From positions 7,474-32,369 of the forward strand of contig KN832888.1 of the NCBI GenBank assembly GCA_000827325.1: 24,896 bases of DNA, given 5' to 3'. A program made the translations under genes and the position numbers. The notes beneath the pieces are model-generated. The model had not been told where the DNA came from. It saw nothing but the letters and a program-made list of their open reading frames with translations, and did not search any database. Shown piece by piece: positions 6,412 to 11,889 of this stretch. Every line of letters starts with the position of its first letter. Position 1 is the first letter of the stretch. This DNA comes from Oidiodendron maius Zn. Lineage: Eukaryota; Ascomycota; Leotiomycetes; Myxotrichaceae.

Positions 6412-9400
6412 CTATAGCTGTCCTACAGCCCTCATAGCAGCAAGACAAGCATCTCGATATACTACCATGCCCGGACTACGCGGGTGGAATGTTTTAACTT
6501 GGCGGGTGGGAGTATACCAAGGGATATCTTGGCTGCTGTAGTTGCCATTTGCGATATCTTGTTCTGCTGCTTGGTATCGCACCGCCTCGGGACCCGTGGG
6601 GTCCTCAGCTATGGTAATAGATACCTGGCACATGGAGTAGGCATATGGGTCCGGGTCGGTACCCAGCGTCTGATTGCAGGTTGTATAGTCTGGGAGCGGG
6701 ATTTGGCCAGCAGTAATTATGGCGCTGACTTCGGCGGCTTCAACGGCTGCAGTTTCCTGGTTTTATTTTAGTCTCTTCTGAGAAATTAAGGGAAGGTGAA
6801 TTAGGAGTGGAAGTGATATATTGGACCAATGAGGGGAAAATGAGAAGAGTAAGAGAGGAGGGAAGCCCACATCTAAAGCACCACTAATACTAGTATCTTT
6901 CCAGGCACTTAAGAAGAAATATGTATCCACCCTATCTGGATCAGGTTCGTGAAATTCTGCGTTAGGATTCTCGCACCATCGGTGCTGGCCGATATCATAG
7001 TACGCATTAACATCAACGAAATGTACCTGCGATGTACCATACTCGGTATTGGCGTCGTTTACAGCTGCCTGGATCACGCTGTTCAGTGTTATGACAAGAT
7101 TATTCAATTCTGCCCTTAGGTCAGTTGTTAAATATACGATGCGGTTTAAGATTGGATCCGAAGATGGATCATAGGCCGCCCAAAAGTAATGAAAAGTGGT
7201 TTTGTCGCAGTCTGTCGTATCTGCGTTAAAGAAGGCGACATAACTAGTGACGTAGAGATGAAAAGACTGAGCTGTGTCAGCAAGTGTGATTCGATTCAAG
7301 CATGTCCTAATAACATAAAATTGGTGTGGTCTTACACTTTGTCCAGATTTCTCCAAAATGCTAATGTATGCCTCCTTAAGTTTGTACTGTAGGCCTGAAT
7401 CGGTGTTATCATTCATGTATTCCATAGCCTTATCCTCAGTAGCCACGCAGTTCGCCCGGTTTGTAGATCCCAAGCGGGCTGTATTGGGTGTGATCACACA
7501 GTTCCAGACTAAGTCGCTGAAGAAAACATCATTGCCGCCAACCGAAAGCGTGGCAATTGAAGCAGCGCTGGCAGTGTCCCACGCAGCTATCTGCTGAGCC
7601 ACACCAGTGAGGGTATCACCTGAGCACACCTTTTCAACGTAGGTAATGCTTGGATCGGTCCCTATCATCCAGGTGTGCAGCAGCCTCCCGAAATTGTTAG
7701 AGCCAACACGACATTTATCTGTCGACGTAGTCCCTGTGCCCATTCCTGCGCCGTAGGAATCTCCAAAGTGTGCATAAGACCCAATTGCCGTTGTGCATAC
7801 TCCTGACGGGCAGCTTGACGAGGGCTCAATCCAACCATTAATCGCAGATAGAAACGGATGAATAACCTCAACAGTATGGGCCCAAGCACTGGCGTCTTGC
7901 ACGACTCCGTCAAATGAGGCCACCATCCAGGCAGATCCAATTGTAAAAATGTTATAAAGATAAATATTTTCGTTGTTCTCAATAGATATGAGGCGCAGTT
8001 GACAATACTGAGTGTCAACGCAAGCTTGATCGTAGTTTTGCATCCAAGAATAGAGACCAGCACCAGTAATCTACATTGATATATTTAGTACTAGACTCTC
8101 TTACAGAGTCAAAAAAGAAGTTAAGAATATTTCTAGGGTATAAGATTGAAATATTTCTGCTCACCTGGATGCCCTGGGATTCGGTGATTGTGAGGGCCCA
8201 AGCAGCGAGGCAGGGGAAGGCTGCATCACAATCTAGAAACAACGGATCATTTGGAAATTGACCCAAACTAGGTGTAAATGGATCTGGTGCAATAACAAAT
8301 GGCGGGTAGTACGGACTCTCCGTTTGGATCTGGAGTTTATCAGCTTCTCATTTGACAGTAAAAGTTATACAAAGTTTTACCGTCCCCATATAAATGTCCT
8401 TGGCACCAGCAATGTTATATTGGTAAAGGACACTATGCTCTGATGCGGTTCCATAAAACCAGCATGGCCCGTTACTTTCGATTAACACACCTATGGGTTT
8501 AGCTTAATAGGCAACCGGGACAAAGGACATAATTCAACACACCTCGTCCAGAAAACACATTGATCTGGGTTTGGTTAACTCCAGAGTCCATATCATGGTC
8601 CGCTGTCCACGCCCATACATTCTCAAAATAGCCACTTCCTCCACTTGTAACATGGAAAAGAAGAGATGCAGCAATACAATCTACATTGCTTGAGTTAACA
8701 GGACAGTCACCGGCTTGGAGATTGGTCCCGACCGCGCCTCCAACCCGGAAGTGACAATCTGTATAGCAACGTAAGCAGTAGTGAGAGTATAAGAGTATCA
8801 AAACTGACCCCACATGCCGACAGCACCTTGGTATGCTTGGTTTGCGTTCCATTCCACTAGGACTGCTCCCTGGGTTCCTCCTTTTACAGTAAAAAGAATG
8901 TCTTGTATTTCCATAGTACCAATATCCCCATCATTCGCGACTTTAACCATGACAGTGGAATTGGCCATGTCAGAAAACGACTATATGAAACTTACTTAGC
9001 ATGTTTCCTAGATACTAATAATAAGAAGGAACTTACATCCCCTGAGCCAACAAATTGCGACCAGCAAGCACCCGTAATCACAGAATTAATGGGTATCTAA
9101 GCAAAAATTACCTGATAAGCTTTTGGTATAAAAACCATGATATGGGGTAGACGGCTGCGGGCAATTTGCTTACAATCATAGGGGGAGTTGCAATTATGTA
9201 AGATCCAGTAGGCACAAAAATACCATATCCAAATTTTGCCCCATAATAAAACATATAGCTTAGTCCAGCAGTATCATCCGTTGAGCCGTCACCTAGACCC
9301 AATAAGTATAAAACAAATCCAATAGAAACTCGTTAACGGTAATATGGCAATACGTACCCGTTGCCAATAAACTGGCAGATAGCCAATAATCTCGGGTTGT

Positions 9401-11889
9401 ATTTAGGTATGCAGGCTTGGTCCGTTCAAAATAACCTGCTTGGCCAGTAGTTGCAAGAGTGCTGTAGAGAGAACCATTAATTAGATGGGGAGAATCAAAG
9501 GGTTGGCCAGTAAACCATGAACCGTCAGGGTTCCCAGGGTCGTAGACCGTGCCTAGAACCCAAGAAACAATGGTGAGAGAGCCTCCCTCTAAGATAATGT
9601 TACTTGGGTTCGAGTCGATTATGGCGTAGGTAACACCACTTAATACCATATTGTCGATGGTGATTAATACTTGTTCTTGTGTTGTGCTGTTGAGAGTTAG
9701 AATGTAGAAAGTGACGAGTTGGATGACGAGAAATACTTTCTCACCTTCCTATTGTATTGTCCATAACGATTGCGGCTAGTACATTGGTGAAGGTAGAGTC
9801 GAGGACATAAATCGAGCCTCCTACATCAGTAGATTCAAACCATATCCCCCAGGTACAGTCAACAATGTCAAGAGATTTCCCTGTCCTACTAGTAAGCATA
9901 TGCTTAAACTTTGAAGAACATAAAGTCTCTAAGAGATAAGACAAAGCTTACATGTCCAACCCCAGTCCCAAAGCATATAAATAGCATAATTAGCATTGAG
10001 AAAAATCATGTTCCTTGTAGTAAACTGTTGATTACCACCTAATGGCTTGTTAACTGCAATATAGATGCCAAATAAAATAAAGACACTACTATCAATTAAG
10101 AAGTTAGAATTTTTATTCTGTTTTTGTTTTAAGAGTAATGGAATATAGAGGGGTAAATATGGTCTCAAAACTCATAGAAATATTCACAGAAATAGCAGTA
10201 TGTTAATTCGAGAAACATACCTGACATTGTAAACCTATGTTTCCACCAGCAGTTATAATATCCGACATAAATCCACCGCTGCCATTCTCAGAGTCTATGA
10301 TCACAATAATCAGTACTTAGTTATGGCGAGAGAGAAAAGAGAGCATCCACGAACAGATCCCAACTTGAGTACTGGTACTCTTATCCGTCATGAGGATCGC
10401 AATGTTCTGCAGACTTGTCGCTGTGAAAACCTGTTAGTCACGAATATAATGCGAGTATATGGATTGGCAAACCTTGCGCAACTTGCCAATGAATTCCGAT
10501 AACCCCGCTTGTAGTACATTGAGTCAAGTCGATGACAAAATATCGAATTTGTCGAAGAAAGTTGTTCTATAAAGTCAATTTTAAGACCGCATTATTCTCT
10601 GCATATGAGATAATACTCACAGTATTGATATACCATTCAGCTGTCCCGCCGAGATAAACATCTGAAGTGATTACGCCTGAGACTCTACGTCAACACTTAT
10701 CTTTGTAATATTGGTGAGAAGCAAACCTAGGCCAACGAATTTTGGGGCTGCAATAATGCTCGGGTGTCCATTGCCCTGTAAAGAGATTAGTTGTAGTTAT
10801 TTATATGACTTTCACACCTATTGAACTTACATTGCCTACAAGCTGAGTGTTGTAATAAGCAATTATCGGAGTGCTAACCAGGTAGCTTCCTACGAACAGG
10901 GTCAGTAAAAGGGCCATATAACAAAGCAGATATACGAGGCACCTGGAGGAAAGTAGACAATAGCGCCCTTCGTAGACGATGAGCCACAATCGTTTCCACA
11001 TCGGTTACCATCTGCAATAGCAGCATTGATAGCTGCAGTATCATCTGTAAGACCATCTCCTACGGCACCATAGTCTATCACATTCCTGAAAACAAAGTAG
11101 CTGCTATCGTTACCAAATGGATAATTCCCAGGAAATGAGCTAGCGAGGTCTTCGAACCAATAATATGGGTCGTCGCGTTTCTTAAATCGAGAGCCAGTTG
11201 GCATGCCAGGAAAATTATACTTCGCATATTCACCCTCGAATATGTAGTCTTTAAACCAGGTCCCGTTTGCGGCTAAGTTTGCGGCGTCAGCCTCAGCTAC
11301 CAATGCAGCCGCCTTGGCAACAGTTGAATTTGGTGCCGAGAACGAAGTGTTATTGTGGGTCGGCATGTTATTGCCAGTACCATTAGTTGGTCTAGGAATA
11401 TATTGATTCCGCCGCGGGTTTGCTTTCAAGTACGCGCTGGCCACTTCCGCTTGGGCCACAGCAGCAGCAACAAGTTTGCGAGCGTTATCCAAATCGGAGT
11501 CTGTTACGTTTTGGCGTGTCTTGAGAGGCCGTGCTTTCGGCGGAGATCTTTTTGAATTACTTGAAGAGGGCTTTTGAATGAGATAGTCCCAAAGTTTTTC
11601 ATGTGCGTCGTTTGGTAGTTTATCAACTAAATGGGGATTTTCTTCCTTCCATTGAATATCAACTGCGTCAAAGTTCTCTCGAGTAAGAGCAACAAGCCCT
11701 CTTGGACCTGTAGGTGTGATTAGCGTAAGATCTTAACAAAAGAGATACAATAGAATGTAAACCAGAGGAAGTTTTTGAGCTCTGGGCATCAGTCGCGAGA
11801 TTGGTAGAACTGCCATTGATCGTCGGCGCAATTAGAAACAGGAGTGTAAATAGAAGGAAATAATACTGCAATGGGTGACAAGAGGCCAT
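6412..11889 (-). CDS. Secreted GH55 beta-1,3-glucanase fused to an SGNH/GDSL esterase (20 exons)
   Basis: My exon model (minus): 11763-11889, 10943-11707, 10831-10889, 10727-10775, 10621-10676, 10473-10566, 10355-10420, 10221-10294, 9952-10024, 9745-9880, 9358-9686, 9174-9292, 9037-9096, 8809-8980, 8543-8758, 8381-8490, 8165-8329, 7338-8070, 6871-7271, 6412-6756. It totals 4,149 nt, about 1,382 aa, in frame throughout. The start at 11889 was chosen because a signal peptide follows (MASCHPLQYYFLLFTLLFLI). Residues 115-220 form the N-terminal segment seen in fungal GH55 (DLDNARKLVAAAV). GH55 spans about 225-945: the first half begins near DYGAVGDGLTDDTAAIN, with YMLWDWGWTWKSL at its end; the second half begins LGDGSTDDTAG (about 610), with LVEWN, GMWDCHFRVGG, WFYGTASEH and LYSWMQNYDQAC. 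SGNH blocks follow: FGDSYGAG (Ser about 995), SVGGND (Asn about 1070) and TFHPRSPG (His about 1359). The acceptor of exon 9 is uncertain. Confidence 0.85.
7272..7337 (-). other. Candidate in-frame 66-nt intron inside the SGNH coding region
   Basis: The open frame continues through this segment, but its 22 residues interrupt the family pattern. Removing it joins KSGQ to TQSFHLYVTSYVAFFN, as expected for SGNH esterases of this type. The donor is GTGTAAG (at 7337, minus) and the acceptor CACAG with a perfect branch-point candidate, GCTGAC, just before it. Length is divisible by three, so retention would yield a longer protein without a stop. Confidence 0.6.
10025..10220 (-). other. Unusually long intron 8 of the GH55-SGNH gene
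   Basis: The donor GTATGT at 10220 is strong. The intron is about 183-196 nt, against 50-94 nt for most others in this gene. The acceptor could be at 10025 (giving QCQ-FTTRN) or after 10038 with an alternative donor GTCAGG (giving QCGNQQFTTRN, which matches the GH55 family better). It is AT-rich and could hold a small insertion. Confidence 0.5.

What the first reader, a model, noticed from the sequence alone, without database searches (positions are those of the whole stretch)
6412..11889. One secreted protein combining a full GH55 glucanase and a full SGNH esterase
The last GH55 exon (8070 downward) runs in one open frame from the GH55 C-terminal motif LYSWMQNYDQAC into FGDSYGAG, SVGGND and, two exons later, TFHPRSPG. 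No stop or start separates the two enzymes, and all 20 exons keep frame (4,149 nt). GH55 enzymes normally end after the second beta-helix at about 750-900 aa. Joining them to an esterase suggests coordinated attack on, or remodelling of, an acylated or ester-linked beta-1,3-glucan, or lipid and glucan in a host or fungal wall. The functional idea is inference.
Basis: partly seen in the sequence, partly recalled or inferred. Interest (0 to 1): 0.75.

Follow-up and report, generated by a model that had tools for sequence, protein, structure and literature searches.

The report
Fungal glucanase fused to lipase-like esterase
This fungal gene appears to encode one secreted protein that joins a glucan-cutting enzyme to a lipase-like enzyme; the pairing also occurs in other fungi, but this gene seems to have acquired its second half separately.

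Summary
One minus-strand gene (11889-6412; 20 exons, 4,155 nt, 1,384 aa in my model) encodes a secreted GH55 beta-1,3-glucanase followed, after about 12 residues and inside one open exon, by an SGNH ester hydrolase. The catalytic motifs are present.

The architecture is not unique: three more gene models of this genome and 14 of the database proteins examined have it. But the window gene stands apart. Its GH55 half is nearest to Helotiales GH55 proteins that end where its SGNH half begins. Its SGNH half sits among SGNH tails of proteins without GH55; one clade of all GH55-borne SGNH domains is rejected (p-AU 1.1e-5). So GH55 gained an SGNH tail at least twice.

A homologous domain folds like a Streptomyces phospholipase A1 and lipase. 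I read the protein as a fungal-wall glucanase carrying an acyl-ester hydrolase. The substrate is inferred; 'acylated glucan' is one possibility. No paper on the fusion turned up in an open-access library. New variant of a known kind.

The parts
6412..11889 (-). Whole coding gene, 20 exons: 11889-11763, 11707-10943, 10889-10831, 10775-10727, 10676-10621, 10566-10473, 10420-10355, 10294-10226, 10038-9952, 9880-9745, 9686-9358, 9292-9174, 9096-9037, 8980-8809, 8758-8543, 8490-8381, 8329-8165, 8070-7336, 7266-6871, 6756-6412 (4,155 nt, 1,384 aa)
   Evidence: open frames and splice-site modelling, final choice by hand; model equals the protein used in the searches
11812..11889 (-). signal-peptide-like N-terminus, residues 1-26
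   Evidence: hydrophobic stretch, ten-residue mean up to 3.1; depends on intron 11762-11708; both automatic runs chose another first exon without it
7825..11162 (-). GH55 double beta-helix domain, about residues 225-975 (spliced)
   Evidence: PF12708 267 bits; beta-1,3-glucanases 5m5z and 3eqn, E 1.8e-158 and 2.3e-154; GH55-only protein P0054 63% identical up to residue 975
8318..8320 (-). Glu842 of QTESPY, aligned with QTETPY of P. chrysosporium 3eqn (catalytic acid by recall)
   Evidence: alignment; coordinate
7336..8070 (-). junction exon: GH55 C-terminus, linker and SGNH start in one open frame
7789..7824 (-). linker, residues 976-987 (contains CPSGVC)
   Evidence: GH55-only P0054 and P0055 align to residue 975; SGNH relatives mostly begin at 984-995
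6415..7788 (-). SGNH ester hydrolase domain, residues 988-1384 (spliced)
   Evidence: 53 homologues; nearest P0001, 63% identity
7756..7758 (-). SGNH block I serine, Ser998 (FGDS)
   Evidence: aligned; GDS invariant in the 32 relatives of alignment A2, which does not hold the window; coordinate derived
7531..7533 (-). SGNH block III asparagine, Asn1073 (GGND)
   Evidence: GGN invariant in A2
6484..6486 (-). SGNH block V histidine, His1361 (TFHP)
   Evidence: FHP invariant in A2
7267..7335 (-). intron inside the SGNH domain that leaves the frame open if unspliced
   Evidence: splicing removes a 23-aa insert absent from 8 homologues

Best explanation
One gene encodes one secreted protein with two enzymes. 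The GH55 half releases glucose or short sugars from beta-1,3-glucan of a fungal (or oomycete) cell wall and may hold the protein there. The C-terminal SGNH half, related to Streptomyces phospholipase A1 and lipase, cleaves acyl esters exposed at that wall, most likely of lipids. The gene arose when a Helotiales-type GH55 gene gained an SGNH tail of the kind borne by GH71, FG-GAP and M35-like proteins, independently of the other GH55-SGNH genes in the same genome and in other fungi. Shown by computation: the fusion, the motifs, the separate descent of the SGNH half. Inferred: activity, substrate, place of action.
Confidence: 0.62

Rival explanations
1. The SGNH half is a carbohydrate (O-acetyl or other acyl) esterase that strips substituents from wall polysaccharide so that the GH55 half can proceed: the first reader's 'acylated glucan' idea.
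Confidence: 0.22
2. Two separate genes, glucanase and esterase, are read through in the model because a stop, promoter or terminator in the junction was missed or lost by sequencing error.
For: No RNA evidence; the gene model is computed and partly hand-set. In the contig-5 sister the halves are separated by stops unless two predicted introns are spliced.
Against: In the contig-3 and contig-11 sisters the end of the GH55 tail and the SGNH start again share one open frame, and 14 database proteins have the fusion. The SGNH half alone would have no start with a signal peptide: only Met903 and Met942, inside GH55, and no comparable hydrophobic stretch.
Confidence: 0.05
3. One ancient GH55-SGNH gene, with loss of the tail in GH55-only relatives, so that no second fusion took place.
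For: Changes on the GH55 tree could be one gain plus losses. The other GH55-borne SGNH domains are compatible with one clade (p-AU 0.41).
Against: The window's SGNH is 57-63% identical to the tails of its five best non-GH55 hits and sits among them at 100/99. Holding it with the other GH55-borne tails is rejected (p-AU 1.4e-5 and 1.1e-5; 5.6e-5 with the Beauveria-Paraphoma group; 0.0016 with the contig-5 sister).
Confidence: 0.07

Closest known systems
GH55 beta-1,3-glucanases with solved structures (5m5z; 3eqn)
   Same: Residues 222-950 align over the whole catalytic unit, including SEH and QTE motifs.
   Different: Those chains have 757 and 758 residues and carry no esterase tail.
Streptomyces phospholipase A1 4hyq, S. 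rimosus lipase 5mal, esterase 1esc (S. scabies by recall)
   Different: Chains of 236, 234 and 302 residues; the fungal domain has about 395.
GH55-SGNH proteins in databases (P0057, P0063, P0067, P0070, P0072, P0079, P0080, P0082, P0086-P0089, P0091, P0092)
   Same: GH55 followed by SGNH in one protein.
   Different: Their SGNH tails lie on other branches than the window's (P0087 was not in the trees). The first 8, found from the window, are 28-38% identical to it over the junction.
GH71-M35-like-SGNH 'mutanases' and FG-GAP-SGNH proteins (Aspergillus, Penicillium, Trichoderma, Pseudogymnoascus and others)
   Same: SGNH tail of the same close family as the window's, up to 63% identical.
   Different: The N-terminal partner is mostly GH71, FG-GAP or M35-like; PF12708 is listed for 0 of the 53 hits.

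Membership tests
GH55 beta-1,3-glucanase | two pectate-lyase-like beta-helix repeats aligning over the full length of a solved GH55 | tested here: met
   222-950 versus 3eqn and 225-948 versus 5m5z; PF12708 in two stretches
GH55 beta-1,3-glucanase | catalytic glutamate (QTE motif; Glu633 of P. chrysosporium Lam55A by recall) | tested here: met
   Glu842 aligned with that motif; its catalytic role is recalled, a paper search for it found nothing useful
GH55 beta-1,3-glucanase | hydrolysis of laminarin or beta-1,3-glucan | not testable with these tools
   needs protein
SGNH / GDSL ester hydrolase | block I Ser (GDS), block II Gly, block III Asn (GGND), block V His | tested here: met
   Ser998, CSGD, Asn1073, His1361 of the window line up with 8 homologues; the same residues are invariant in 32 relatives
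SGNH / GDSL ester hydrolase | Pfam PF00657 or PF13472 above curated cut-off | tested here: not met
   PF00657 18.8 bits against cut-off 23.6. Of the relatives scanned, P0007, P0008, P0012 and P0020 pass at least one of the two models with this domain; GH55-SGNH proteins P0057 and P0080 pass neither
SGNH / GDSL ester hydrolase | SGNH fold | tested here: met
Phospholipase A1 / lipase (4hyq, 5mal type) | lipid acyl hydrolysis | not testable with these tools
   fold match only
GH55-SGNH fusion proteins already in databases | same two domains in the same order in one protein | tested here: met
   18 of 112 GH55-bearing proteins examined have both, the window and three sister models included
GH55-SGNH fusion proteins already in databases | common descent of the SGNH tail with theirs | tested here: not met
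   p-AU 1.4e-5 and 1.1e-5

The most novel reading that the evidence does not exclude
Fungi have repeatedly and independently attached a lipase-like SGNH tail to secreted fungal-wall glucanases (GH55 at least twice, and also GH71), so that 'glucanase plus acyl hydrolase' is a recurrent, selected design; this genome carries four such GH55 gene models, from at least two separate fusions.
Probability: 0.6. Interest if true: 0.6.

Novelty: new variant of a known kind. Interest (0 to 1): 0.45.

Why it matters
Repeated, independent joining of the same two enzyme types suggests that they work better together. It gives a testable lead on what ester is attacked at fungal walls, be it by fungi that attack other organisms (Beauveria and Orbiliales among the carriers; lifestyles recalled) or by fungi remodelling their own walls. 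Database copies carry names such as 'LysM domain protein', 'mutanase' or 'hypothetical protein', so the esterase half is easily missed.

Tried and rejected
Ab initio modelling without homology added introns that I rejected (11560-11501, 7137-7069) and dropped the signal peptide. Homology-guided modelling also chose another first exon, added a 9782-9740 intron, left 7335-7267 unspliced and ran past the stop. The final model was set by hand. For L017 the automatic model left the SGNH frame before its end; I set its last exon to the stop at 1420 by hand, and an unremoved intron may remain inside its SGNH part.

Structure of a whole GH55-SGNH protein (P0057, 8-row alignment) failed: mean pLDDT 45. 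I used P0008 (M35-like plus SGNH) as proxy; mean pLDDT 79.

Literature, eight searches: no paper held GH55 + SGNH + fusion, mutanase + SGNH, GH71 + SGNH, or glucanase + 'SGNH hydrolase' + 'domain fusion'. GH55 + GDSL + fungal gave 9 papers, of which I saw listing and abstract starts only. GH55 + 'esterase domain' gave 3, seen as listing; in one, PMC7551824, I saw the found passages, where the esterase domain is CE4 fused to CBM18, not GH55. 'SGNH hydrolase' + Beauveria + glucanase gave 1, PMC10455738; its one passage names an SGNH hydrolase-type esterase among the most down-regulated genes in Clonostachys rosea mycoparasitism. A search for GH55 catalytic residues gave 1 paper, seen as listing. 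The library lacks most subscription journals, so absence is weak evidence.

The 94 GH55 proteins scored as lacking SGNH were not examined for other tails beyond their precomputed labels, except six scanned against Pfam, where one showed a sub-threshold LysM match. All three homologue searches used word-sharing candidates within a length band, so their lists are no census.
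Full report
What is there. The window is G000:C19:7474-32369 of a 45.9-Mb assembly in 58 contigs, a filamentous ascomycete judging by its nearest relatives (inference). The minus strand from 11889 to 6412 carries one intron-rich gene. My final model has 20 exons, 4,155 nt and 1,384 residues and reproduces the protein used in the searches. It opens with a hydrophobic signal-peptide-like stretch, then a long N-terminal region with a Lys-Arg site, then GH55 (about 225-975), a linker of about 12 residues and an SGNH domain (988-1384). 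PF12708 scores 267 bits; the SGNH half scores below the Pfam cut-off with PF00657. Against solved structures the first half matches GH55 glucanases 5m5z and 3eqn over about 725 residues, and the second half matches Streptomyces phospholipase A1 4hyq and lipase 5mal weakly but significantly (E 1.9e-6 and 1e-4).

Is it one protein? GH55 end and SGNH start lie in the same exon, 8070-7336. The GH55-only relatives P0054 and P0055 (837 aa; Hyaloscypha and Stipitochalara) align to residue 975, five residues before their own ends, while the SGNH relatives begin mostly at 984-995. The only methionines between 894 and 1000 lie inside GH55, and nothing there resembles a signal peptide, so a separate SGNH gene would have no secretion start. 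Introns were checked against relatives: removing 7335-7267 gives a protein that aligns without a gap there to 8 homologues, keeping it adds 23 residues that none has. Intron 10225-10039 sits at the place and phase of the same intron in L018. Uncertain points are the first intron and the weak donor at 10225; the two automatic runs differed from the final model in these and other introns.

Is it unique? No. A search restricted to the junction (residues 820-1120) gave 46 proteins, 8 of which run across both domains (P0057, P0063, P0067, P0070, P0072, P0079, P0080, P0082). A second, with the contig-11 sister as query, gave 81 proteins, among them 6 further GH55-SGNH proteins (P0086-P0089, P0091, P0092). 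A profile test of all GH55-bearing proteins in hand found SGNH in 18 of 112: the window, three sister models and these 14. They come from Orbiliales, Hypocreales (Beauveria, Cordyceps), Sordariales (Thermocarpiscus), Pleosporales (Paraphoma), Sporothrix and Xylogone (names; lineages of Thermocarpiscus, Dactylellina and Paraphoma, the rest recalled). In the same genome, contigs 5, 3 and 11 hold GH55-SGNH gene models of 1,402, 1,355 and 1,383 aa. On contigs 3 and 11 the end of the GH55 tail and the SGNH start again share an open frame. On contig 5 the fusion depends on splicing two predicted introns at the junction, and the contig-11 model contains a one-base exon upstream of its SGNH exon, so its exact splicing is unsettled. 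All four keep the GH55 QTE motif and the SGNH Ser, Asn and His, with GES for GDS on contig 11 and GGNN for GGND on contig 3. None is checked by transcripts.

Where did the window's SGNH come from? A search with the SGNH region alone, limited to proteins of about 761-2,422 aa, gave 53 hits, none listed with PF12708 (only the 7,985 candidates sharing most words were scored). By my count of the listed Pfam labels, 30 of 53 carry GH71 (PF03659), 14 of 53 FG-GAP (PF13517) and 32 of 53 the M35-like peptidase domain PF14521, often together. In all six non-GH55 proteins scanned, an M35-like match lies before the SGNH tail, in P0007 below the cut-off. The window protein has no such match. For trees I used 43 of the 53, dropping ten near-copies or fragments beforehand (P0011, P0014, P0015, P0016, P0018, P0019, P0035, P0046, P0049, P0052), plus the GH55-borne domains. 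In three builds with 53, 55 and 60 rows the window's SGNH sits with P0001, P0002, P0004 and P0005, Pseudogymnoascus and Cosmosporella proteins without GH55, at 100/99. I ran five one-clade tests on the SGNH trees. All GH55-borne rows together: rejected (p-AU 1.4e-5 with 10 rows; 1.1e-5 with 17 rows). Window plus three Beauveria-Paraphoma rows: rejected (5.6e-5). Window plus the contig-5 sister: rejected (0.0016). The other nine GH55-borne rows together: not rejected (0.41) (all). Several of those rows have long branches and their mutual order is unsure. A search of the own genome found no other close copy of this SGNH (other matches 27-33% identical, and a 38% match of the contig-5 sister).

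The GH55 half tells the same story. In trees of 34, 33 and 43 GH55 domains the window groups with P0054 and P0055, which lack SGNH (100/98 or 100/99), then with the own-genome GH55 L018, in whose model no SGNH was found. SGNH-bearing GH55 domains need 4 changes of state in each tree; starred branches force 3 of them in the first two and 4 in the largest. One clade of them is rejected (p-AU 1.2e-37). Losses could account for part of this; the SGNH tree shows that the window's tail is not of their kind. The GH55 trees left out P0070 and P0087, the later two also P0060, P0074 and P0084, and I added only 5 of the further SGNH-less GH55 proteins. So at least two fusions are firm; three or four are possible.

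Verdict. The domain pair is already present in databases; I found no paper on it in an open-access library. What seems new is that the pairing has arisen more than once and that one genome holds four such gene models of at least two origins.

Noticed in passing
L017 6808-1420 (minus), L029 6610-1282 (minus), L030 6676-1288 (minus): Three more GH55-SGNH gene models in the same genome (contigs 5, 3, 11); the contig-11 copy reads GES where GDS is expected and the contig-3 copy GGNN for GGND.
   Followed up: yes
L018 1577 to about 7472 (plus): A GH55 gene whose C-terminal region differs: a downstream open frame (6525-7472) has no Pfam match at E 0.01 and may be another kind of tail or a separate gene.
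   Followed up: partly
window 531-1126 and 22828-23701: Two repeat families (222 and 300 nt, 82% and 76% identical) occur in the AT-rich blocks at both ends of the window (1-kb GC 0.22-0.34), so the gene lies in a GC-richer island between AT-rich, RIP-like blocks (RIP is my reading, not tested).
   Followed up: partly
window 17553-18329 (plus): Open frame with a heterokaryon incompatibility (HET, PF06985) domain, 74 bits.
   Followed up: no
P0001 and P0003: Database proteins with an SGNH domain at each end, around fn3 or FG-GAP and M35-like domains.
   Followed up: no
L020 (contig 19, bases 1-7473): The start of the contig next to the window reads N throughout.
   Followed up: no
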